The notes under the pieces: generated by a model
Told to the model about the DNA's origin: nothing
The model's input: the letters and a program-made list of their open reading frames with translations, nothing else
The model's database searches: none
Assembly: GCF_027604915.1 (NCBI RefSeq)
Contig: NZ_JAJAQC010000033.1
Coordinates: 1-64,000 of the forward strand
Length of the DNA: 64,000 bases
Reading direction: 5' to 3'
Source of the DNA: Streptomonospora mangrovi
GTDB taxonomy: Bacteria; Actinomycetota; Actinomycetes; Streptosporangiales; Streptosporangiaceae
Shown: piece by piece, positions 13,620-25,415 of the stretch
Layout of the letters: each line of letters starts with the position of its first letter
Numbering within the stretch: position 1 is the stretch's first letter
Made by a program: the position numbers and the translations under genes

Positions 13620-16600
13620 TCAGATCACGCCGGTCTGGAGGTCGCCGGGGCGGGCGGCGCGGACCTGGTCGGCGAGCGCGGCGAGGGTGGGGGCGGCCAG
13701 GAACGCGCGGGTGGACAGCTCCGCGCCGAGGTCGCGGCGCAGGACGGTGATCATGCGGATGGCCAGCAGGCTGGTGCCGCCCAGGCTGAAGAAGTTGGCG
13801 TCGCGGTCGCCGACCTCGGCGCCGACCAGTTCCGACCACACGCCGGCGATGTGCTTCTCGACCTCGTCGGCGAGCGGGGCGGGGCCGCCGGCCGGCCGGG
13901 CCGCCGCCAGCTCGGCGAGAGCCTGCTGGTCGACCTTGCCGTTGGCGGTCAGCGGCAGCTCGGCCAGGGCGTGGACCTCGGCGGGCACCGCGTGGGCGGG
14001 CAGCCGCGCCGCCAGGTGGGCGGCGAGGTCGGCGGGGCCGGGCGCGGGGTCGCCGGCGACGAACGCGGCCAGCCGGCGCGCGCTGCGCTCGCCCACGGCC
14101 AGCACCGCCGCGCGGCGCACGCCGGGGTGGTCCTCCAGCGCGGCCTCGACCTCGCCGAGTTCCAGCCGGTGCCCGCCGATCTTGACCTGGCGGTCGGTGC
14201 GGCCCAGGAACTCCAGGAGCCCGCCGGGGCGGTAGCGCCCGAGGTCGCCGGTGCGGTACCAGCGCTCGCCGCCGGCGGTGGGGAACCGCTCGGCGGTGCG
14301 CCGGGCGTCGCCCCGGTAGCCCTCGGCCAGCCCGGCGCCGCCGATCCACAGCTCGCCCGGGGTCCAGTCGGGGCAGTCGCGGCCGTGGGGGTCGACCACC
14401 CGGTAGCGCTGGTTGCGCAGCGGGTGGCCGTAGGGCACCGAGGGCCAGCCGTCGGGGACGTGGCCGCCGTCGAAGGCGTTGGACCAGATGGCCGCCTCGG
14501 TGGCGCCGCCCAGGGCGACCAGGCGCACCCGCCCGCCGGCGGCGGCGCGCAGGCGCGGCGCGAGGTCGGCGCCCACCCAGTCGCCCGACACCAGGGCCAG
14601 CCGCAGCGCGGGGGGCAGCCCGGGGCCTTCGGCGGCCAGCAGCAGCATGTCCAGCAGGGCGGGCACGGTGTTCCACACGGTCACGCCGTGCTCGGCGCAC
14701 AGCGCGCGCCAGCGCTCGGCGTCGCGGCGGTCGTCCTCCTCGGGCACCACCAGCGCGCCGCCGGCGCCCAGCAGGCCGAAGAGGTCGTAGACCGACAGGT
14801 CGAAGTCCAGCGCCGACAGCGCGAGCACCCGGTCGCCGGATCCCACTTCGTAGCGCTCGGTGATGTCGGCGACGGTGTTGAGCGCGGCGGCGTGGCTGAC
14901 CGCGACACCCTTGGGCGCGCCGGTGGAGCCGGAGGTGAACACGGTGTAGGCGAGCGCGCCGGGGTCGGTGGCGAGGGGCGCGGCCAGCGGCGGGGCGGCG
15001 CGCAGCTCGGCGGGGTCGGCGGCGCGCGGCGCGCCGGTGCCGTCGCCCACGGCCAGCACGGTGCCGGCGGCGCGGTGGATGCGCTCGCGCCGCAGCGGGG
15101 GCTGGCCGGCGCCCACGGGCACGTAGGCCGCGCCGGCGGCCAGCACGCCCAGCACGGCCACGACCTGGTCGGCGCCCTTGGGCAGGCACACGCCCACGGT
15201 GTCGCCGGGGCGCACGCCGCGCCCGACCAGCCCGGCGGCGGTGCGCAGGGCGGCCTCGGCCAGTTCGCCGTGGGTGAGGACCCCCTCGGCGGTGATCACG
15301 GCGGGGGCGTCGGCGCGCTCGGCGGCGCGGGCGAAGAACCCCCCGTGCAGGGTGCCGGCGGGGCGGGGGCCGGCGGTGGCGTTGGCGGCGGCGCGGGCGG
15401 CGCGCTGGTCGGCCGGCAGCGGGGGCGCGGCGGCGCGCGGCCAGGCGGCGGCGCCGTCGGCGGCCAGCGCGCGCAGGGTGTCCAGGTAGGCGGCGAACAT
15501 GGCGTCGAGCACGCCGGGGCGGAACAGCTCCTCCACCGCGTCCCAGGAGACCTCCAGGCCGCCGCGGCTCTCCATGACCTGGTTGTCCAGGTAGACCTGC
15601 GGGGACTGGGACAGCCCCCACACCCGCTCGGGGAACTCGGGCGACAGGTCCAGGGAGACGTCGCCGCCCACGCCCAGGGAGCTGGTGAACACCACGGGGA
15701 TCCCCGGCTGCGCGCCTCCGGTGCGCCGCGCCAGCTCGCGCAGCACCCACTCGGCGGGCGCCTCGCGGTGGTCGAGGTCGCGGCCCAGCCGCCGCTGGAG
15801 GTCGCGGGCGGCCTCCAGCGGGTCCCGGCCGGGCTCGCGGTGGTAGGAGGTCAGCGACAGGGAGGTGAAGTCGCCCAGGACGCGGCCGATGTGGGGGTGG
15901 ACGTCGTGCCGGTTGAACAGGGTGAGGGTGAGGCTGAGGGCGGTCTGGCCGCTCCAGCGGCCCAGCACCTCGCCGTAGCAGGCGAGCAGCAGCGCGGCGG
16001 GGGTGATCCCGGCCGAGCGGGCCAGCGCCCGCAGCGCCGCCCACTCGCGGGGGGCCAGCCGGTCGGCGCGGCGGGTGAAGCGGGGGCGGTCGATGTCGGC
16101 GGGCGCGCGGCGCAGCGGGAGGTCGGGCGCGGGCGGCAGCTCGGCCACGCGGGCGCGCCAGTAGTCCTCGTCGCGGCGGCGCCGCTGGGGGTCGGGGCGC
16201 ACCTGGGCGAGGTAGTCGCGGAAGGTGACGTCGAGCGGCTCCAGTTCGGCGGCGGGCTCGCGGTAGAGGCGGTCCAGCTCGGTGTAGAAGGTCATGATGC
16301 TCAGGGCGTCCAGGACCAGGTAGTCCAGGCCGACGCCGAGGCGCACCCGCTCGGCGCCGCCGCGCCGGTAGCGCACCGCGCGCACGTCGAACAGCGGCCA
16401 CCGGGTGGGGTCGAGGACCTGGTGGGACATGGACTCCCGCAGGTCGCGCAGCGCGGGGTCGGGGTCGTCGGGGTCGGCGTCGGCCACGGGCACCCGGACG
16501 GGGGCGACCTCGGGCAGGACCCGCTGGTCGCCGTCGGGGCCGAAGACCGCGCGCAGCATGTCGTGGCGGGCGACGAGCCGGTTCAGCGCGCGCTCCAGCC

Positions 16601-19600
16601 GGGGCAGGTCCACGCCGGCGCCGTCGAACTCGGTGTAGTGGTAGGTGCCCACCCCGCCCAGCGGGAAGTCGGGGCTGCGGCCGGTGAGGTAGGCCCGCTG
16701 CACCTCGGTGGGGGCGAACGGCTCGTGGCGCGCGCCGGGGTCGTGGGCGATGGGCGCGGCGCCGGTACCGGTGTCCGCCGCGGCGCCGGGTTCGGGCAGC
16801 CGGGCGGCGAAGTCGGCGAGCACGGGGTGGGCGAACAGCTCGGCCACGCCCGCCTCGGCGTGGCCGAGGGCGCGCAGCGCGGCGACCACGCGGGTGGCCA
16901 GCAGGGAGTCGCCGCCCAGCGCGAAGAAGGAGTCGCCGCGGTGCACGGCGGCGGCGCCCAGCACCTCTTGCCAGACCTCGGCGACGCGGCGCTCGGCGGC
17001 GGTGGCGGGCGGTTCGGCGCCGGCCGGGGCGGCGCCGAGGTGGTCGGTGATCCGGGCGGCCACGGCGGCGCGGTCGGGTTTGCCGTTTCGGGTGAGCGGC
17101 ACGGCGGGCAGCGCCACCACGGGGTCGGGCAGCATGGCCGGCGGCAGCAGGGTGCGCGCGTGGTCGGCGGCGGCTTCGGCGAGCCCGTCGGCGGGGGCGC
17201 CGGGGGCGGGGGCGACGGCGGCGGCCAGGCGCGGTGCGGGTCCGGGCAGGGCCACGGCGACGGCGGCGGCCACGCCGGGGTGGGCGCGCAGGGCGGCCTC
17301 GACCTCGCCGGTCTCGACGCGCACGCCGTTGACCTTGACCTGGTGGTCGGCGCGGCCGAGGAACTCCAGGGTGCCGTCGGGGGCGTAGCGGGCGAGGTCG
17401 CCGGTGCGGTACCAGCGCTCGCCGCCGGCGGTGACGAACCGGTCGGCGGTGGCGGCGGCGTCGCCCCGGTAGCCCCGGGCCAGCCCGGCGCCGCCCACCC
17501 ACAGCTCGCCGGCGACGTGGTCGGGCCGGTCGCGGCCCTGGGGGTCGACCACCCGGCAGCGCACGCCGGGCAGCGGGCGGCCCCAGGGCACGCACGGCCA
17601 GGCGGGGTCGGCCTCATCGACCTCCAGCAGGGTGGAGTGGATCGCGGCCTCGGTCATGCCGCCCAGCGCGAGGAACCGGCAGTCGGGGGCCTGGGCGCGC
17701 AGCCGGTCGGCGAGGGAGGGGGCGATGCGGTCGCCGCCCAGCAGCGCGGCGCGCAGCGGCGGCATCGGCGCCGCGCCCGCCTCGACCGCCGCCAGCAGCA
17801 TGTCCAGCAGCGCGGGCACGCAGTTGAGCAGGGTCGCCCCGGCGTCGGCGGCGGCGCGCGCCCAGGTGAGGGCGTCGCGGCGGTCGGCGGAGTCGACCAG
17901 CACGGCGGCGCCGCCGGCCGACAGCGGCGCGAACAGGTCGAACACCGACATGTCGAAGTCGGGGTCGGCCAGCGCCAGGGTGCGGTCGCCGGGGCCGGTG
18001 CCCAGGTGGGCGTTGAGCACGTCGATCGTGTGCGCGGCGGCGCGGTGGGGGACCTCCACGCCCTTGGGGGTGCCGGTGGAGCCGGAGGTGAACAGCACGT
18101 AGGCGAGGTCGTCGGGGGCGGCCGGGCGGGGTTCGGCGGGCGGTGCGGTGCGCGCGTCGTCCCAGGCCAGCACGGGTACGCGGCCGTCGTGGCGGCCGGG
18201 GTCGTCGGTGAGCAGCAGCGCCGGCGCGCCCGCCGCGATGACGCGGGCGCGCCGGGCCGCCGGCTGGTCGCGGCCCACGGGCAGGTAGGCGCAGCCGGCC
18301 GCGAGGACCCCCAGGACGGCGGCCACCTGGTCGGCGCCCTTGCGGAGGTCGACGGCCACGACCGCGCCGGCGGGCGCCTGGGCGGCGACGGCACCGGCGG
18401 CGCGCAGCGCGCGGTCGGCCAGGTCGCCGTAGGAGACGGCGGTGCCGTCGGCGGCGACCAGGGCGGTGGCGGCGGGCGCGGTGCGGGCGCGGGCGAGAAA
18501 GGGCGCGTGCAGGGTGCGGGGCGCGGGCGGCGCCGCGTCCGGCGCGGTGGCGGCGCGCGCGGCGGCGCGGGCGGCCGGCAGCGGGGGGCAAAACGGGCGC
18601 GACCAGGCGGCGGGGTCGTCGATCAGCTCCTCGACCAGGGCGCGGTAGCGGTCGAACGCCTCGGCGGCCGCGCCGGGCGCGAACGCGTGCTCGCGCAGGT
18701 CCCAGTTGAGCAGCAGGCCGCCGTCCAACTCGGTCACCTGGGCGTCCAGCAGCACCTGGGGGCCCTGGGAGATGATCCACGACGGCGCGCCGAACACCTC
18801 CTGGACGGCGTCGGTGAACAGCGGGCCCAGGCCGATGGCGCTGGTGTAGACGACCGGCGCCAGGACGGGCGCGCCGCCGCCGGAGCGGGCGAGGTCGCGC
18901 AGCACCTCCACCCCGCCGTAGGCGCCGTGGTCCACCGCCTGGTGGAGGTCGGTCCGCACGGCGGCGGCGCGCTCGGCGAAGGGGGCGGGCGCGCCGGTGT
19001 CCACGCCCAGCAGCACCGAGCCGCTGAAGTCGCCGATCACCTGGTCGACGTTGGGGTGCAGCGGCGCCCGGTCGAAGAGGGGCAGGTTGAGGGTGAAGCG
19101 CGGCTCGGCGCTCCAGGCCCCCAGCACCTCGGCGAAGGCGGCGGCCAGGGCGGCGGCGGGGGTGACCCCGGCGGCGCGGGCGCGGCGGGCGAACGCGCGG
19201 GTGCGCTCGGGCGGGAGGTGGTGGTGCAGCCGGGTGGAGCGGGTCGGCGGGGCGCCCGCCGAGGCCGGCGCGAGGGCGTCGGGGACGGTGGGCAGGGCGG
19301 GCGGCGGCGGGAGGTCGGGCAGGCGCTCGGCCCACCAGGCGCGGGCGCGCTCGCGAGGGGCGGGGTCGGCGGCGGCGCGGGCCGCGCGGTCGGCCAGGTA
19401 GCGGGCGAAGTCGTAGTCCAGCGGGGGCAGGGAGCCGCCGGTGTAGGCGGTGCGCAGGTCCTCCAGCAGCACGCGCAGGCTCAGCGCGTCGGCGACGATC
19501 ATGTCGAGGTCGACGTGCAGCCGGGTGGCGCCGCCGGGCAGCAGGGACAGGGCGATGTCCAGCACGTGCCCGGCGGCGACGTCCATGCGGCGGTGGGTGG

Positions 19601-20240
19601 AGTCGTCGCGCACCCGCGCCAGGACCCGCTCGGCCTCGTGCGGGGAGAGGTCCCGCAGGTCGTGCACTGCCAGGGCGGGCGCCTCGGCCTCGGCGGGGGC
19701 GGTGTACTGGCGGCCGTCGCCGGTGAAGCGCACGCGCAGCATGGGGTGGCGGGCCACGACGGCGCGCACGGCGGCGGCGAGCCGGTCGGGGTCGAGGCCG
19801 CGCCCGTCGAACTCGGTGTAGAAGTGCGCGGCGACCCCGCCCAGGGGCTGGCCGTCCTGCCGGCCGATCCAGTAGGCGTGCTGCATGGTCGCCATGGGGA
19901 AGGGCGCGCCGGGGGCGGCGGGCGCGGCGGAGCCGGGGGCGGCGACCAGGTCGGTGGGGGCGGCGGTGTCGGCGGCCGGGGCGGGCGTGCGGGCGGCGGG
20001 AGCGGCGGGGGCCGAGCGGCGCAGCAGGTCGCGCCAGGCCGCCGCCGTGGGTTCGGCGGCAACGTCGGCGAACGTGACGTCGTGGCCGGCCTCGCGCCAG
20101 GCGCCCACGAGCCGGATGAGCCCGAGGGAGTCCAGCCCGTGGTCGAAGAGGTCGTCGGTGTCGGCGAAGCCGTCGGTGCCCAGGATCGCGGCCACCTGCT
20201 CCCGTACGGACTTGGGCCCGGCCTCGGCGCGGTCAGCCAC
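13620..20240 (-). CDS. NRPS 1: ArCP-Cy-A-PCP-Cy-A(Cys)-PCP (PchE/HMWP2-like)
   Basis: The 2206-residue synthetase starts with an aryl carrier domain (8-75, Ser38 in DHGLDSLGL). Cy1 (about 115-545) has D246, D251, S254. A1 (about 575-1060) has FTSGSTGTPKG and pocket residues D-M-F-N-L-G-L-I-H-K. PCP1 carries Ser1112. Cy2 (about 1170-1600) has D1306, D1311, S1314. A2 (about 1630-2115) has D-L-Y-N-V-S-L-I-W-K, a cysteine code. PCP2 carries Ser2157 in an unusual LGGTS context. Neither A domain has the embedded epimerase/MT-like insert found in PchE or HMWP2. There is no release domain, so the chain passes to NRPS 2, 90 bp downstream. A1 shares Gly301 and His331 with the threonine code and may make an oxazoline. 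The GTG start at 20240 follows AAGGGGG. Confidence 0.93.
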   Translation of the reverse strand: MADRAEAGPKSVREQVAAILGTDGFADTDDLFDHGLDSLGLIRLVGAWREAGHDVTFADVAAEPTAAAWRDLLRRSAPAAPAARTPAPAADTAAPTDLVAAPGSAAPAAPGAPFPMATMQHAYWIGRQDGQPLGGVAAHFYTEFDGRGLDPDRLAAAVRAVVARHPMLRVRFTGDGRQYTAPAEAEAPALAVHDLRDLSPHEAERVLARVRDDSTHRRMDVAAGHVLDIALSLLPGGATRLHVDLDMIVADALSLRVLLEDLRTAYTGGSLPPLDYDFARYLADRAARAAADPAPRERARAWWAERLPDLPPPPALPTVPDALAPASAGAPPTRSTRLHHHLPPERTRAFARRARAAGVTPAAALAAAFAEVLGAWSAEPRFTLNLPLFDRAPLHPNVDQVIGDFSGSVLLGVDTGAPAPFAERAAAVRTDLHQAVDHGAYGGVEVLRDLARSGGGAPVLAPVVYTSAIGLGPLFTDAVQEVFGAPSWIISQGPQVLLDAQVTELDGGLLLNWDLREHAFAPGAAAEAFDRYRALVEELIDDPAAWSRPFCPPLPAARAAARAATAPDAAPPAPRTLHAPFLARARTAPAATALVAADGTAVSYGDLADRALRAAGAVAAQAPAGAVVAVDLRKGADQVAAVLGVLAAGCAYLPVGRDQPAARRARVIAAGAPALLLTDDPGRHDGRVPVLAWDDARTAPPAEPRPAAPDDLAYVLFTSGSTGTPKGVEVPHRAAAHTIDVLNAHLGTGPGDRTLALADPDFDMSVFDLFAPLSAGGAAVLVDSADRRDALTWARAAADAGATLLNCVPALLDMLLAAVEAGAAPMPPLRAALLGGDRIAPSLADRLRAQAPDCRFLALGGMTEAAIHSTLLEVDEADPAWPCVPWGRPLPGVRCRVVDPQGRDRPDHVAGELWVGGAGLARGYRGDAAATADRFVTAGGERWYRTGDLARYAPDGTLEFLGRADHQVKVNGVRVETGEVEAALRAHPGVAAAVAVALPGPAPRLAAAVAPAPGAPADGLAEAAADHARTLLPPAMLPDPVVALPAVPLTRNGKPDRAAVAARITDHLGAAPAGAEPPATAAERRVAEVWQEVLGAAAVHRGDSFFALGGDSLLATRVVAALRALGHAEAGVAELFAHPVLADFAARLPEPGAAADTGTGAAPIAHDPGARHEPFAPTEVQRAYLTGRSPDFPLGGVGTYHYTEFDGAGVDLPRLERALNRLVARHDMLRAVFGPDGDQRVLPEVAPVRVPVADADPDDPDPALRDLRESMSHQVLDPTRWPLFDVRAVRYRRGGAERVRLGVGLDYLVLDALSIMTFYTELDRLYREPAAELEPLDVTFRDYLAQVRPDPQRRRRDEDYWRARVAELPPAPDLPLRRAPADIDRPRFTRRADRLAPREWAALRALARSAGITPAALLLACYGEVLGRWSGQTALSLTLTLFNRHDVHPHIGRVLGDFTSLSLTSYHREPGRDPLEAARDLQRRLGRDLDHREAPAEWVLRELARRTGGAQPGIPVVFTSSLGVGGDVSLDLSPEFPERVWGLSQSPQVYLDNQVMESRGGLEVSWDAVEELFRPGVLDAMFAAYLDTLRALAADGAAAWPRAAAPPLPADQRAARAAANATAGPRPAGTLHGGFFARAAERADAPAVITAEGVLTHGELAEAALRTAAGLVGRGVRPGDTVGVCLPKGADQVVAVLGVLAAGAAYVPVGAGQPPLRRERIHRAAGTVLAVGDGTGAPRAADPAELRAAPPLAAPLATDPGALAYTVFTSGSTGAPKGVAVSHAAALNTVADITERYEVGSGDRVLALSALDFDLSVYDLFGLLGAGGALVVPEEDDRRDAERWRALCAEHGVTVWNTVPALLDMLLLAAEGPGLPPALRLALVSGDWVGADLAPRLRAAAGGRVRLVALGGATEAAIWSNAFDGGHVPDGWPSVPYGHPLRNQRYRVVDPHGRDCPDWTPGELWIGGAGLAEGYRGDARRTAERFPTAGGERWYRTGDLGRYRPGGLLEFLGRTDRQVKIGGHRLELGEVEAALEDHPGVRRAAVLAVGERSARRLAAFVAGDPAPGPADLAAHLAARLPAHAVPAEVHALAELPLTANGKVDQQALAELAAARPAGGPAPLADEVEKHIAGVWSELVGAEVGDRDANFFSLGGTSLLAIRMITVLRRDLGAELSTRAFLAAPTLAALADQVRAARPGDLQTGVI

Positions 20241-20282
20241 GACGATTCGCCCCCTTGCGGTGTGGTTCGCGGGTATCGGTGA

Positions 20283-20303
20283 TAATGAAAACCGTTTTCA
20301 TTA
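20283..20303. promoter_or_regulatory. Zur-type operator in the divergent NRPS/ligase promoter
   Basis: A perfect 10-1-10 inverted repeat: TAATGAAAAC, a central C, GTTTTCATTA. Its 15-base core TGAAAACCGTTTTCA (20286-20300) is a 7-1-7 palindrome matching the Streptomyces Zur box (TGAAAATGATTTTCA class). It lies 43 bp before the NRPS 1 start and 74 bp before the ligase start, so one bound dimer pair could repress both directions. It does not look like a DtxR/IdeR iron box. Fur-family repressors have similar sites, so Zur versus Fur is inference. Confidence 0.8.
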
Positions 20304-20376
20304 CCGGTGTCTATGTATAGCACCGCCCGGATCGCCGAGTCGAGCCCGGATCGCCCACATCACAAGGAGGAGTCGC

Positions 20377-21993
20377 ATGCCGCAGGACTGGCTGCCCTGG
20401 CCCGCGGACACGGCACGGGAGTACCGCGAGCGCGGGTTCTGGGACGACCGGCGGCTGGACGCGCCGCTGCGCGAGGGCGCCGCCCGCCACGGCGACCGCC
20501 TCGCCCTGGTCGACGGCGCCGACCGGCTCAGCTACGCCGATCTGGACACCTGCGTGGACCGGGTGGCCGCCGGGCTGGCCGCGCTGCCGGTGCGCGCGGG
20601 CGAGCGCGTGCTGCTGCAACTGCCCAACCGCGCCGAGTACGTGGTCACCCTGTTCGCGCTGGTGCGCATCGGCGCGCTGCCGGTGCTGGCGCTGCCCTCG
20701 CTGGGCCCGGCCGAGGTGGAGTCGCTGGTGCGCACCAGCGGCGCGTGCGCGCTCGTGGTCGCCCAGGGCCGGGGCCGCGCCGACCCGCGCCCGGCCGCCG
20801 CGCGCATCGCCGCCGAGGCGCCGTCGGTGCGCCGCCTCATCGTGGTGGGCGACCCGGGCGACACCGGCGGCCTGGCCTGGGACGCCCTGCTGGAGGCCGG
20901 CGCCGCCCCGCCCGCCGCCGATGCGGGGTCCGCCGAGGAACCGGCCCTGCTCCTGCTGTCGGGCGGCACCACGGGCACGCCCAAGCTGATCCCCCGCACC
21001 CACGCCGACTACGGCTACAACGCCCGCGCCTCGGCCGCCGCGTGCGGCGTGGGCGCCGACGCCGTGTACCTGGCGGTCCTGCCGGCCGCGCACAACTTCA
21101 CCATGGTGTCGCCGGGGATCGTGGGGACGCTGGCGACCGGCGGCACGGTGGTGCTCAGCCCCGACCCCAGCCCCACGACCGCCTTCGGGCTGGTGGAGCG
21201 CGAGGGGGTGACCATCACCGCGCTGGTGCCCGCGCTGGTGCCGGCGTGGCTGGAGGAGGCCGGGCGCACCGCGCACGACCTGGGGTCGCTGCGGGTGCTC
21301 CAGGTCGGCGGCTCCCGGCTGGACGACGCCACGGCGCGGCGGGTCGGCCCGGCGCTGGGCTGCCGCCTCCAGCAGGTGTTCGGGATGGCCGAGGGCCTGA
21401 ACAACTACACCCGGCTGGACGACCCCGACGACGTGGTGTGCACGACGCAGGGCCGCCCGCTCTCCCCCGCCGACGAGGTCGCGGTGGTGGACGAGGACGG
21501 CCGGCCGGTGCCGCCGGGCACCCCCGGCGAGCTGCTCACGCGCGGGCCCTACACGATCCGCGGCTACTACCGGGCGCGGGAACTGGACGCGCTGCGGTTC
21601 ACCCCCGACGGGTTCTACCGCACCGGCGACCTGGTGGTGCGCACCGAGCGCGGGGACCTGGTGGTGGTGGGACGGGTGAAGGACCAGGTGAACCGGGCGG
21701 GCGAGAAGATCGCGGCCGTGGAGGTGGAGGAGCACCTGCTGGGGGTGCCGGGGGTGGCGGCCGCGGCGGTGGTGGGCGCGCCCGACCCCGTGCTCGGGGA
21801 GCGGTCGGTGGCCTTCGTGGTCGCCCGGGGCGCCGCCTGCCCCGGCCGGGAGGAGGTGCGCGCGGCGCTGCTGGCGCGGGGGGTGGCGCCGTTCAAGGTC
21901 CCTGATGAGGTCCGCGCGGTGCCCGCGCTCCCGCTGACCGGGGTGGGGAAGGTGGACAAGCGCCCGCTGCGGGAGCGGGCGGCGGAGGGGTAG
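20377..21993 (+). CDS. 2,3-dihydroxybenzoate(aryl)-AMP ligase, DhbE/YbtE family
   Basis: The 538-residue protein begins at ATG 20377 after AAGGAGGAG. The AMP-binding loop [11 protein letters not shown] lies at about 193-203. The aryl pocket reads HNFTMVSPG at 239-247. Ser245 aligns with Ser240 of DhbE, which goes with 2,3-dihydroxybenzoate, whereas salicylate ligases usually have Cys there. The position of DhbE Val337 is Asn342 here ([12 protein letters not shown]), which is neither the usual Val nor Leu. C-terminal GVGKVDKR holds the catalytic lysine. It should activate the aryl acid and load Ser38 of the NRPS 1 ArCP. It is divergent from NRPS 1 and shares its operator. Confidence 0.92.
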
Positions 21994-22014
21994 CGGGGGG
22001 CGGCCTCCGGCCGT

Positions 22015-22037
22015 GCCGGCCCGGGGGCCGGGCCGGC
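22015..22037 (+). terminator. Hairpin after the aryl-AMP ligase
   Basis: Nine-base arms GCCGGCCCG and CGGGCCGGC enclose a 5-base loop, 22 bp after the ligase stop and before the convergent isochorismatase. There is no T run, as is common in actinomycetes. Confidence 0.5.
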
Positions 22038-22053
22038 GGGCGGGCGGGCGGCC

Positions 22054-22098
22054 GGGGGGGGGGGGGGGGGGCCGCGGGCGTCCGGGCCGGGGGGGGGG
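22054..22098. other. Long G homopolymers between convergent genes
   Basis: Runs of 18 G (22054-22071) and 10 G (22089-22098) lie in the 187-bp gap between ligase and isochorismatase stops. They resemble the runs at the left edge of the window and may be a sequencing artefact or a join. No gene is affected. Confidence 0.6.
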
Positions 22099-22180
22099 TC
22101 GGGCGGGACGGCCGGACGGCCGGAGGTGGTCGGCGGGGCCGGGGCGGACGGCGGAGGCCGGGGGGGACAGCCGGAGCCGG

Positions 22181-22819
22181 TCAGCCGGACAGGGCGGCCA
22201 GCACCTCCTTGGTGCCGACCGCGCCCGCGCAGCGGTTGGCGGCGTACGACAGGGCCATGGCGTGCTCGGCGGCGGAGAAGTCGGCGACGGCGTCGCCGAC
22301 CACGAAGGTCTCGAAGTCGCGCATGAAGGAGTCGCAGGCGGTGACCAGCACCCCGATGTGGGCGTAGACCCCGCAGACGACCAGTTGGTCGCGGCCGGAG
22401 TCGCGCAGCCGCCACTCCAGGTCGGTGCGGGCGAAGGCGCTGTAGCGCCACTTGGTGATCACGGGCTCGTCGGCGGCGGGCGCCAGCGGCTCCACGATGG
22501 CGGTGTGGGCGGGGTCGTCGCGCAGGCCGTCGCCCCACAGGTCGCGCAGGAGGCCGCGCTCCCGGGGGTGCTGGGACCCGGGCTGGGCGGTGTAGACGCG
22601 CGGCACGCCCAACTCGGCGCAGCGGCGGCGCAGCGCGGAGATGTTGGCGAGGAGGCTGGGCACGGGCTCCTCCTCGGGGGTGAAGGCGTCGAGGAAGTAG
22701 CGCTGCATGTCGTGGATGAGCAGCACGCAGCGGTCGGGGTCCACCGTCCACGCCATGCGGTTGGCGGGCAGGTCGCCCTCGCCGGGCATCGGGTAGGGGT
22801 CGATGGTCGGTAGCGGCAT
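22181..22819 (-). CDS. Isochorismatase (EntB/DhbB/PhzD family, no carrier domain)
   Basis: The 212-residue protein starts at ATG 22819 after AAAGGA. It has the family signatures: DLPANRMAW near the N terminus, [11 protein letters not shown] with the catalytic Asp, the basic residue in [15 protein letters not shown], and [22 protein letters not shown]. It cleaves the vinyl ether of isochorismate to give 2,3-dihydro-2,3-dihydroxybenzoate and pyruvate. The length equals the catalytic domain alone; the aryl carrier domain fused in EntB/DhbB is instead at the N terminus of NRPS 1. It works with the dehydrogenase encoded upstream on the same strand. Confidence 0.9.
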
Positions 22820-22860
22820 CAGCGGTCCTTTCGCGCGGGCGCCACGCGCCGGAGGCCGGA

Positions 22861-22980
22861 GCGGCGGCGGGGACGGGATCGGGACGGGGATGGGGCGTGG
22901 GGTGTGGGGGCGCGGAAGCGGGGCGGGGGTGCGGGGGGTGTGGGGGGTGTGGGGGTGGCGGCGGGCCACCGGCCCGGGAG
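22861..22980. other. G-rich strand with many GGG/GGGG tracts
   Basis: The 171-bp gap between the isochorismatase start and the dehydrogenase stop carries more than ten runs of three to six G on the + strand, which is the template strand for both flanking genes, with spacings compatible with G-quadruplexes. No ORF or operator was found. Confidence 0.45.
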
Positions 22981-22990
22981 TCACCGGGGT

Positions 22991-23833
22991 TCAGGCGCCG
23001 AGGCTGGCGCCGCCGTCCACGCGCAGGTCGTGCAGGGTGATGTGCCGGGCGGCCGGGGAGATGAGGAAGGCGACCGACTCGGCGACGTCGTCGGGCTGGG
23101 CGATCCGACCCAGGGGTACGGCCACCCGGAAGGCGCGCGGATCGGCGCCGGGCGCGGTAGCGGGTTCGGCGCGGGCGCCGGGGGCGGGTGCAGCGGGCTC
23201 GGCGGACTCGGCGGGCTGCGTCGCGGGGGCGGGTTCCCGGTCCCACAGCGCCCGCTGCATGGCGGTGTCGGTGGCGCCGGGCGAGACGACGTTGCAGCGG
23301 ATGCCGTGCGGGGCGAGTTCCAGGCCCAGCGACAGGGTGAAGTGGGCGGCGGCGGCCTTGGAGGCGGCGTAGGCCGCCATGGCGGCGCGGGGCACGGCAC
23401 CGGCGTCGGAGCCGACGGTGACGATGCTGCCGGACTGGCGGGGCACCATCGCCCGCGCCGCCGCGCGGCAGACGTGGAAGACGCCGAGGGTGTTGACGTC
23501 GAAGACCTCGCGCCACTGCCGATCGGAGAAGGCGGTGACCGGCCCCCAGCGCAGGACCCCCGCGACGTTGACGGCGGCGGCGAGCGCCCCGAGGTCGCTC
23601 TCGGCCGCCGCGACCGCCGCCTCCACGGCGTCGGCGTCGGCCACGTCGACCGCGTATCCCCGGACGCGGTGCCCCCGCGCGGCCAGCCGCGCCGCCAGGT
23701 CGGCGACGCCGTCGCCGTCGACGTCCAGCGCCGCCACGGCAAACCCCCGCTCGACCAGCAGACGCACGACGGCACTCCCGATTCCCCCGGCAGCCCCGGT
23801 GACCAGGGCCGTTCCGGGCGGCTCCCCTACCAC
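22991..23833 (-). CDS. 2,3-dihydro-2,3-dihydroxybenzoate dehydrogenase (DhbA/EntA-like SDR)
   Basis: A 280-residue short-chain dehydrogenase. The cofactor motif is TGAAGGIG (12-19), and the catalytic Tyr155 and Lys159 are in AYAASKAA, preceded by [12 protein letters not shown], the EntA-type context. It oxidises 2,3-dihydro-DHB to 2,3-DHB with NAD+. I place the start at GTG 23833, preceded by GGAAAG; the frame is open further upstream but would run through the Zur-like site. Residues about 201-232, just before the substrate lid, are an Ala/Pro-rich insert not found in EntA, explaining why it is about 25 residues longer than the family norm. Together with the isochorismatase it commits the cluster to 2,3-DHB. 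Confidence 0.87.
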
Positions 23834-23852
23834 GGAGCATCTTTCCGAGGAA

Positions 23853-23867
23853 TGAAAATGATTATCA
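23853..23867. promoter_or_regulatory. Second Zur-type operator, upstream of the DHB dehydrogenase
   Basis: TGAAAATGATTATCA is a 7-1-7 inverted repeat with one mismatch and only one base away from the Streptomyces Zur consensus. It lies 20 bp before the proposed GTG start of the dehydrogenase, where a repressor would block transcription of that gene and the isochorismatase. Confidence 0.65.
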
Positions 23868-24059
23868 TGTTCACACCATAGCAACGACCTTCGGACAGAC
23901 CCGCAGTAGCCACCCACCCGCACAGCCTGGCCGCCGCCACCCTGGTCCGATCACTGGAGATGAGGCGGTTCCCGTGCGGTGCGAACGGGACGGAACCAGA
24001 CGTCCGGCCCGCCCCAGCACCGCTCAGGTGAAACCTGGGACCCGCGGGTAACCGGCCGT

Positions 24060-24075: not shown

Positions 24076-24141
24076 GCTCCAGTGACAATGCGTTGCCTTC
24101 TGACTACGGTGAGGGCACGTCCCCTTCCGCTGGAGGTTGCG

Positions 24142-24258
24142 ATGGGTCACCGTAAAGAAGGCGAACCGGACCAGAAACCGGAGCCCAAGATCATCCAGGA
24201 CGGGCAGAACCCGTCCCCGCACGGCCGCGGCGGTGAGAAGACCGGCGAGAACAAGTGA
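24142..24258 (+). CDS. 38-residue peptide, candidate imiditide-type RiPP precursor
   Basis: A short gene starting at ATG 24142 behind an ideal TGGAGG with 5-base spacing. The peptide is strongly hydrophilic: 7 Lys/Arg, 8 Asp/Glu, 5 Pro, no Cys and no signal sequence. Its centre reads PKIIQDGQNPSPHG, so Asp20 is followed by Gly21, the dipeptide most prone to aspartimide formation; a Gly/Lys/Glu-rich tail follows. The stop codon overlaps the GTG of the methyltransferase by 4 bp (GTGA), showing the two are translated together. Imiditide loci consist of just such a charged peptide plus a protein-isoaspartate methyltransferase homologue that turns an Asp into an aspartimide. The assignment rests on architecture and the Asp-Gly; which Asp (10 or 20) is modified is not known. 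Confidence 0.75.
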   Translation: MGHRKEGEPDQKPEPKIIQDGQNPSPHGRGGEKTGENK

Positions 24259-25415
24259 CTTCGCCACCGCACGGCGGCCCGGCCGCGCTGGCCGGGCTGC
24301 TGTGCGCTCGCGGAGTGCTCACCGACCCGGTGTGGGAGCGCGTCTTCGCCTCGGTGCCGCGCCACGCGTTTCTGCCCGACGTGGTCTGGGCCAACGACGC
24401 CGACGGGTGGCTGTCCCCCGTCACACGCGACGATCCGCGCTGGTGGGAATGGGCCTACTCCGACGTGCCCGTCGTGACCCAGGTCGACGACGGCGCACCC
24501 GAGGGCGCGGACGGGCGCGGACGGCTGGCGACCAGCTCGGCGAGCCAACCCCTGATGGTCGCCGCCATGCTCGACGCGCTTGAGGTGTACGACGGTGCGC
24601 GGGTGCTGGAGATCGGCACGGCGACCGGCTTCAACGCGGCCCTGCTGTCGGCGCGGCTGGGATCGCGGCAGGTGACCACGGTGGAGATCGACGCGGCCCT
24701 GGCCGAGCAGGGGCGGGCGAACCTGGAGCGCGCGGGCTTCGCGCCGACCGTGGTCGTGGGCGACGGCACGAAGGGGGTCGCCGCTGACGCCCCCTATGAC
24801 CGGGTGCTTTCCACGGTCGCCGCGAAGTCGGTGCCCTTCGCCTGGGTGGAGCAGACCCGGCCCGGCGGGGTGATCGTGACCCCCTGGGGCAACGACTACC
24901 TCGGCCACCACCTGCTCCGCCTGGACGTGGGAGCCGACGGCACCGCCTCGGGGCGGATCATCGGCCCTGCGGCGTTCATGTGGCTGCGCGGTCAGCGCTC
25001 CTACACGGGAACCTGGCGCGACCACATCGACTTCGACGCGCCCATGGCCGAGGGCACGACGACCCTGGACCCCGGCGCCGTACTGGCGGCCGAGGACAGC
25101 GGTGCCCGGTTCGTGATCGGCGCGGCGGTGGAGGACCTCTACGCCATGCGGTTCAGCGCTCGCGACGGGTCGGGCGAGTTCACGGTCTGGCTCTACGACG
25201 CTCGGGGGTCCTGGGCGGCGGCCGACCACGTCCCCGGCGCGGACGAGTTCGCCGTGAGCCACCACGGGCCGCGCCGCCTGTGGGCCGAGGTCGAACGCGC
25301 CTACACCGCGTGGGAGGCGGCGGGCCGACCGGAACGCGATCGGCTCGGGCTTACCGTCTCCGCTGCGGGACAAGCGGTGTGGGTCGATGAACCGGGAATC
25401 GTGGTCGGCCCGTGA
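24255..25415 (+). CDS. Protein-L-isoaspartate methyltransferase-like enzyme, candidate imiditide maturase
   Basis: The 386-residue protein starts at GTG 24255 within the peptide stop. Residues about 15-215 form a PIMT domain: the substrate-loop motif SSASQP at 94-99 and SAM motif I VLEIGTATG at 117-125, followed by an acidic strand end TVEID. A C-terminal extension of about 170 residues, absent from the roughly 220-residue repair enzyme, is seen in PIMT homologues that work in RiPP pathways. These enzymes methylate the side chain of an Asp in a dedicated precursor, after which the ester collapses to an aspartimide. The dedicated small gene upstream is why I do not call it a general repair methyltransferase, although that remains possible. 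Confidence 0.82.
   Translation: MTSPPHGGPAALAGLLCARGVLTDPVWERVFASVPRHAFLPDVVWANDADGWLSPVTRDDPRWWEWAYSDVPVVTQVDDGAPEGADGRGRLATSSASQPLMVAAMLDALEVYDGARVLEIGTATGFNAALLSARLGSRQVTTVEIDAALAEQGRANLERAGFAPTVVVGDGTKGVAADAPYDRVLSTVAAKSVPFAWVEQTRPGGVIVTPWGNDYLGHHLLRLDVGADGTASGRIIGPAAFMWLRGQRSYTGTWRDHIDFDAPMAEGTTTLDPGAVLAAEDSGARFVIGAAVEDLYAMRFSARDGSGEFTVWLYDARGSWAAADHVPGADEFAVSHHGPRRLWAEVERAYTAWEAAGRPERDRLGLTVSAAGQAVWVDEPGIVVGP

What the first reader, a model, noticed from the sequence alone, without database searches (positions are those of the whole stretch)
24142..25415. Two-gene imiditide-like RiPP unit: 38-residue peptide coupled to a PIMT homologue
A 38-codon gene with an ideal Shine-Dalgarno overlaps by GTGA a PIMT-family methyltransferase with a 170-residue C-terminal extension. 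The peptide is charged, Cys-free, and has Asp20-Gly21 (IIQDGQNP), a dipeptide primed for aspartimide formation. Established knowledge: imiditides are RiPPs in which a PIMT homologue methylates an Asp of a dedicated precursor to give a stable aspartimide. Nothing else (no lanthionine synthetase, no ATP-grasp ligase) is adjacent, so the aspartimide would be the only class-defining change.
Basis: partly seen in the sequence, partly recalled or inferred. Interest (0 to 1): 0.85.

Follow-up and report, generated by a model that had tools for sequence, protein, structure and literature searches.

The report
Two-gene type I pamtide (imiditide) unit
A tiny gene pair in an actinobacterium makes a 38-residue peptide and the enzyme that very probably methylates one aspartate in it to form an aspartimide or isoaspartate; it is a clear new member of a recently described peptide class, not a new class.

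Summary
A 38-codon gene (24142-24258) with Shine-Dalgarno GGAGGT overlaps by GTGA a 386-aa PIMT homologue (24255-25415). The peptide is under strong protein-level constraint (dN/dS about 0.08). The enzyme has the ~170-residue C-terminal domain and WXXXGXP motif of RiPP-associated PIMTs (PAMTs); its model matches Thermotoga PIMT 1dl5 best. Of 79 PAMT homologues, 69 have an intact Gly/Pro/Asp/Lys-rich, Cys-free 26-47-aa peptide directly upstream, 6 more a decayed one. In the window's clade Asp20 is invariant (29/29), followed by Gly (27) or Ser (2). No other RiPP enzyme is adjacent; neighbours are not conserved. This is a type I pamtide / imiditide unit.

Additions: a dedicated sigma-HrdB-type promoter (24082-24110) shared by many such units; a class-wide N-terminal G-x-H motif, also in type II precursors, of unexplained role; several retained PAMTs with broken precursors; four intact type I units, one type II unit and graspetide-type PAMTs in this genome. 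Modification itself was not testable here.

The parts
24082..24110 (+). Dedicated promoter, sigma-HrdB type: -35 GTGACA (24082-24087), 17-nt spacer, -10 TACGGT (24105-24110), 31 nt before the ATG
   Evidence: TGAC[AG]-N16-18-TANNNT found at this place upstream of 29 of 69 precursors; mean 0.18, maximum 2, in 100 shuffles. The generic TTGACA/TATAAT scan finds nothing here, so this rests on conservation, not on the E. coli consensus.
24132..24137 (+). Shine-Dalgarno GGAGGT
   Evidence: Sequence
24142..24258 (+). Precursor peptide gene, 38 aa: MGHRKEGEPDQKPEPKIIQDGQNPSPHGRGGEKTGENK
   Evidence: purifying selection
24169..24171 (+). Asp10 codon, invariant in the clade (alternative modification site)
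   Evidence: 29 of 29
24199..24204 (+). Asp20-Gly21 codons, the likely modification site
   Evidence: Asp 29/29; Gly 27/29, Ser 2/29
24255..24258 (+). GTGA overlap of peptide stop and enzyme start (translational coupling inferred)
   Evidence: Sequence
24255..25415 (+). PAMT: protein L-aspartyl O-methyltransferase of the PIMT family, 386 aa
   Evidence: PF01135 E 5.5e-30; TIGR04188 332 bits, cut-off 380; best PDB fold 1dl5
24606..24635 (+). SAM-binding motif I, LEIGTATGFN (residues 118-127)
   Evidence: Alignment A1: G121, T122, G125, N127 invariant
24900..25412 (+). C-terminal domain typical of RiPP-associated PIMTs (about residues 216-386)
   Evidence: AlphaFold model pLDDT 91.5; alignment with 1dl5 extends over it (379 columns)
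25311..25331 (+). WXXXGXP motif (WEAAGRP, residues 353-359)
   Evidence: W353 and P359 invariant in 20 PAMTs; motif defined in PMC13001092

Best explanation
It is a stand-alone type I pamtide / imiditide biosynthetic unit. A dedicated promoter transcribes a two-gene mRNA; the peptide and the PAMT are translated as a coupled pair. The PAMT uses SAM to methylate the side chain of an Asp in the otherwise unmodified peptide, most likely Asp20. The backbone amide of Gly21 displaces methanol to give an aspartimide, which is partly retained and partly opened by water to isoAsp/Asp. Shown here: the genes, constraint on the peptide, the fixed pairing, the invariance of Asp20, the enzyme's family and fold. 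Inferred from characterised relatives: the chemistry. Unknown: the biological role, any trimming, and export.
For: Peptide real and constrained. Same two-gene arrangement in 69 of 79 PAMT homologues, composition G 21%, P 15%, D 12%, K 11%, no Cys, matching published type I precursors (G 17%, P 17%, D 10%; PMC10787088). Asp20 invariant with Gly or Ser after it and His-Gly at nearly fixed distance. Precursor subtypes follow the enzyme tree: 25 changes against 55.8 shuffled, 0 of 200 as low. PAMT C-terminal domain and WXXXGXP. No other RiPP enzyme adjacent and no conserved neighbour. Shared promoter upstream of the peptide.
Against: No experiment. TIGR04188 score is below its curated cut-off (332 vs 380), though that model was made for graspetide PAMTs and all 20 relatives aligned here match it. 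Asp10 is as invariant as Asp20. Published type I peptides are described as strongly positive; this one has net charge 0. The closest relative (L010, Murinocardiopsis flavida) has a TAG at precursor codon 11 while its PAMT is intact, so the pairing is not always maintained.
Confidence: 0.87

Rival explanations
1. Same unit, but the end product is an isoAsp peptide (or the modified residue is Asp10), so that the aspartimide is only an intermediate. This is a refinement of the best explanation, not an alternative class.
For: n+1 is Gly, a fast-cyclising and fast-hydrolysing context; SpaA aspartimide is fully hydrolysed by 24 h and FcaA ends mainly as isoAsp (PMC13001092, PMC10787088). Asp10 invariant 29/29.
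Against: NmaA accumulates about half aspartimide (PMC13001092). Asp10 is followed by varied residues (S, Q, T, G, A), unlike Asp20.
Confidence: 0.5
2. A housekeeping or repair PIMT with an unrelated upstream ORF or a regulatory leader peptide.
For: PF01135 family; the closest relative keeps the enzyme with a broken peptide.
Against: The peptide is under protein-level selection and tracks the enzyme tree. The genome has two other PIMT homologues (C6:132k, C9:73k) that fall outside the PAMT clade and have no such peptide.
Confidence: 0.04
3. An orphaned graspetide methyltransferase acting with an ATP-grasp ligase encoded elsewhere.
For: Best NCBIfam model is the ATP-grasp-associated one; three graspetide-type PAMTs lie elsewhere in this genome.
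Against: No ATP-grasp gene nearby; those PAMTs fall in other branches; the peptide has the composition and invariant pattern of type I precursors.
Confidence: 0.03
4. The conserved N-terminal Gly-x-His (here Gly-His-Arg) and the His-Gly after Asp20 hold a metal ion that folds the peptide into a hairpin for the enzyme, as zinc does in type II pamtides.
For: His, Asp10, Asp20 and the C-terminal His are the invariant residues of the clade, with a variable linker between the two Asp. Type II precursors from other families begin with the same MGKH. Other PAMTs need cyclic or hairpin substrates (PMC10787088).
Against: The published SpaA reaction lists no added metal (PMC10787088); NmaA is still modified after loss of its first 20 residues (PMC13001092). 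G-x-H sits at varying distance from Met (exact in 52 of 69), and some subtypes have one His only.
Confidence: 0.07

Closest known systems
Type I pamtides / imiditides (SpaA-SpaM of Streptomyces sparsogenes; NmaA-NmaM of Nonomuraea maritima)
   Same: Two-gene unit; short Gly/Pro/Asp/Lys-rich Cys-free precursor; PAMT with C-terminal domain and WXXXGXP; conserved Asp next to Gly/Pro; no cyclase
   Different: n+1 residue is Gly (NmaA has His); net charge 0 rather than strongly positive; DGQ-x4-HG core subtype. The published sequences themselves were not available to align.
Type II pamtides / cysimiditides (FcaA, TceA, NalA)
   Same: PAMT plus precursor; several share the MGKH start; this genome has one such unit (L047)
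   Different: Window peptide has no Cys and no zinc ribbon
Graspimiditide PAMTs (AmdM, SsfM; TIGR04188)
   Same: Same enzyme family and domain layout
   Different: No ATP-grasp ligase or graspetide precursor here; score below the model's cut-off
T. maritima PIMT (1dl5)
   Same: Catalytic fold plus C-terminal domain; best PDB match
   Different: 21% identity; no dedicated peptide gene known for it

Membership tests
Type I pamtide / imiditide | Dedicated small precursor gene beside a PAMT gene | tested here: met
   GTGA-overlapping pair; 69 of 79 homologues have an intact one
Type I pamtide / imiditide | Precursor about 45 aa, rich in Gly, Pro, Asp (Lys), without the tetracysteine motif | tested here: met
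   38 aa, no Cys; family composition matches
Type I pamtide / imiditide | Highly conserved Asp near conserved Gly/Pro | tested here: met
   Asp20 29/29, Gly21 27/29, position 24 Pro 19/29
Type I pamtide / imiditide | PAMT with extra C-terminal domain and WXXXGXP | tested here: met
Type I pamtide / imiditide | No primary modification enzyme of another RiPP class in the cluster | tested here: met
   Flanks are siderophore-like genes, an SDR, a TetR-type regulator and kdp genes; not conserved with the pair
Type I pamtide / imiditide | Charged N- and C-termini used in recognition | tested here: inconclusive
   Ends HRK and EKTGENK are charged, but net charge is 0; recognition not testable
Type I pamtide / imiditide | PAMT converts Asp to methyl ester, aspartimide, isoAsp | not testable with these tools
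   Needs co-expression and mass spectrometry
Type II pamtide / cysimiditide | CxxCxGxG zinc-ribbon precursor | tested here: not met
   No Cys in the peptide
Graspetide (graspimiditide) | ATP-grasp ligase in the cluster | tested here: not met
   None near; TIGR04188 332 < 380 bits

The most novel reading that the evidence does not exclude
The class-wide N-terminal G-x-H, together with the invariant Asp10, Asp20 and His27, marks a metal-binding, hairpin-forming peptide. Type I pamtides would then not be truly linear substrates, and the mature product would be a small metal-binding peptide.
Probability: 0.07. Interest if true: 0.65.

Novelty: new member of a known kind. Interest (0 to 1): 0.36.

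Why it matters
In the two papers held, only two type I examples have been tested, and no role is known for any. This copy belongs to a well-sampled subtype with a clear invariant pattern (G-x-H, Asp10, Asp20-Gly/Ser, His-Gly), which gives a sharp list of mutants. The G-x-H motif is shared with type II precursors although truncation of NmaA says that the N-terminus is largely dispensable for modification; that points to a second, unknown function of the peptide's start, which can be tested.

Tried and rejected
Copper/nickel ATCUN motif (free N-terminal Gly-x-His after Met removal): exact in 52 of 69 precursors, but the window copy has Gly-His-Arg and other loci carry the motif 1-7 residues further in, so a fixed N-terminal site is not general. 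Defence role: the only PADLOC match is to the generic methyltransferase part of mad2. Conserved operon partner: none; the recurrent neighbour families were an antisense ORF inside the PAMT gene, common SDRs, histidine kinases and XRE regulators. Generic promoter/terminator scan: nothing. The first upstream scan seemed to show homologues without a peptide; the cause was unoriented minus-strand loci, corrected. In one search one row (L012) was out of frame; one search is used instead. In one search some flank proteins were read in the wrong frame; one search is used instead.

Full report
OBSERVATION. An SD, GGAGGT, lies at 24132-24137. The enzyme matches PF01135 (5.5e-30) and, below cut-off, TIGR04188 'ATP-grasp peptide maturase system methyltransferase' (332 vs 380 bits). 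All 20 aligned relatives match the same model.

IS THE PEPTIDE REAL? Against the closest homologue (L010 = L059, Murinocardiopsis flavida, PAMT 78% identical) the peptide gene has dS 0.73 and dN 0.06 (the one stop codon left out), with codon-position differences 4, 2, 11; the two other frames show the opposite pattern. The PAMT pair gives dS 0.60, dN 0.14. Other precursor pairs (L040/L084, L055/L057, L036/L042) show the same.

PAIRING. Seventy of 151 genomes of the family have a PAMT match at E <= 1e-60. I examined 90 distinct PIMT-family loci: 79 lie in the PAMT clade apart from the graspetide (8) and type II (1) rows, and 2 are ordinary PIMT homologues. Of the 79, 69 have an intact short peptide directly upstream, 6 have a decayed one, 2 have none, and 2 (an unclassified and a tandem PAMT) are unclear. 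Composition is G 21.4, P 15.2, D 12.3, K 10.8%, with no Cys. The published type I figures are G 17.3, P 16.8, D 10.2% (PMC10787088).

CONSERVATION. The window enzyme lies in a 30-row clade (SH-aLRT 98) in which 24 members have a DGQ-x4-HG precursor, 2 a shortened DGQ precursor, 3 a decayed one and 1 none; precursor subtypes follow the enzyme tree (25 changes, shuffled mean 55.8, 0 of 200 as low). In 29 aligned precursors of this clade and close relatives, the N-terminal His, Asp10 and Asp20 are invariant; Gly21 is Gly in 27 and Ser in 2; His27-Gly28 is present in 27, the other 2 being shortened copies. So Asp20-Gly21 is well supported as the site, but Asp10 is not excluded. The linker between the two Asp varies in length.

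ENZYME. Motif I is LEIGTATGFN. WEAAGRP at residues 353-359 fits WXXXGXP, which PMC13001092 gives as a mark of imiditide, lasso and graspetide PAMTs. The AlphaFold model (pLDDT 91.5, pTM 0.89) matches 1dl5, the T. maritima PIMT with a C-terminal domain, best and over the longest stretch (379 columns) among the PIMTs; the other PIMTs match the catalytic part only.

SURROUNDINGS. The pair sits between a catecholate-siderophore-like gene set (NRPS 13620-20240 -, an adenylation enzyme on +, an isochorismatase-like and an SDR gene on -) and an SDR, a TetR-type regulator and kdp genes (names from reading the translations). Apart from scattered generic SDR and kinase matches, none of these flanks recurs next to the pair in 18 other loci. 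A promoter of the form TGAC[AG]-N16-18-TANNNT ends 27-40 nt before the start codon in 29 of 69 upstream regions, against 0.18 by chance; in the window it is GTGACA-N17-TACGGT at 24082-24110. So this is probably its own transcription unit. Related PAMTs also occur on 44 plasmid records, all of actinobacteria as far as the tally names them.

MECHANISM. By established work on SpaM and NmaM (PMC10787088, PMC13001092), the PAMT methylates Asp, an aspartimide forms, and it hydrolyses to isoAsp/Asp at a rate set by its context. With Gly at n+1 a stable -18 Da product is not assured: in NmaA, changing n+1 to Gly lowered the aspartimide, and SpaA was fully hydrolysed by 24 h.

WHAT IS NOT YET EXPLAINED. 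Most precursors begin MG[KRSGD]H (His at position 4 in 56 of 69; Gly2 and His4 together in 52). The same start is seen in type II precursors of other families, including one whose residues 19-26 are ITVTSDGK, the published FcaA fragment (L157). In several class-level type I loci GKH is shifted inward (GGKHGGEP). Because NmaA tolerates loss of its first 20 residues, this motif may serve something other than methylation. The two held papers do not mention copper or ATCUN. I treat metal binding as a low-probability lead.

DECAY. Several PAMTs are intact beside broken precursors: L010 (TAG at codon 11), L041 and L043 in this genome, L098; in L022 both precursor and PAMT look disrupted; L025 has Asn-Gly where relatives have Asp-Gly and no clear start. 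Action on paralogous precursors is possible but untested.

VERDICT. New member of a known kind, high confidence. Interest is moderate: the class is recent, its biology is unknown, and this subtype is a good test case, but the architecture is the published one.

Noticed in passing
whole genome G000 (L039-L050): The genome carries PAMTs of several kinds: four intact type I units (C26 window, C28, C121:82k, C29), two with decayed precursors (C69, C121:50k), one type II zinc-ribbon unit (C6:64k, MAQCAMCEGTGVVFTTTDGDGKNPWKSTRPVQCPNCKGTGRV) and three beside ATP-grasp C-termini (C10, C20, C72).
   Followed up: partly
L010 / L059 (Murinocardiopsis flavida): Closest homologue of the unit has an in-frame TAG at precursor codon 11 with an intact PAMT and otherwise conserved peptide; recent loss or an assembly error.
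   Followed up: partly
L023 and L083 against L026: Short precursors look like deletions between the two DGQDP repeats of the longer form; many precursors of this clade carry two DGQ motifs.
   Followed up: no
window 13620-23923: Catecholate-siderophore-like gene set; AT-rich near-palindromes at about 20279-20305 and 23850-23875 (gaaaatgattatcatgttc) resemble iron-regulator boxes.
   Followed up: no
G148:C2 (89,998 bases), L030: A type I unit lies on a contig of the same length and match position as the 89,998-bp plasmid of Streptomonospora litoralis (NZ_CP036456.1); G148 is in the window's genus, so the window is probably a Streptomonospora.
   Followed up: partly
L157, L159, L161, L162, L170: Type II precursors from other families also start MGKH or MAGKH before the zinc ribbon.
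   Followed up: partly
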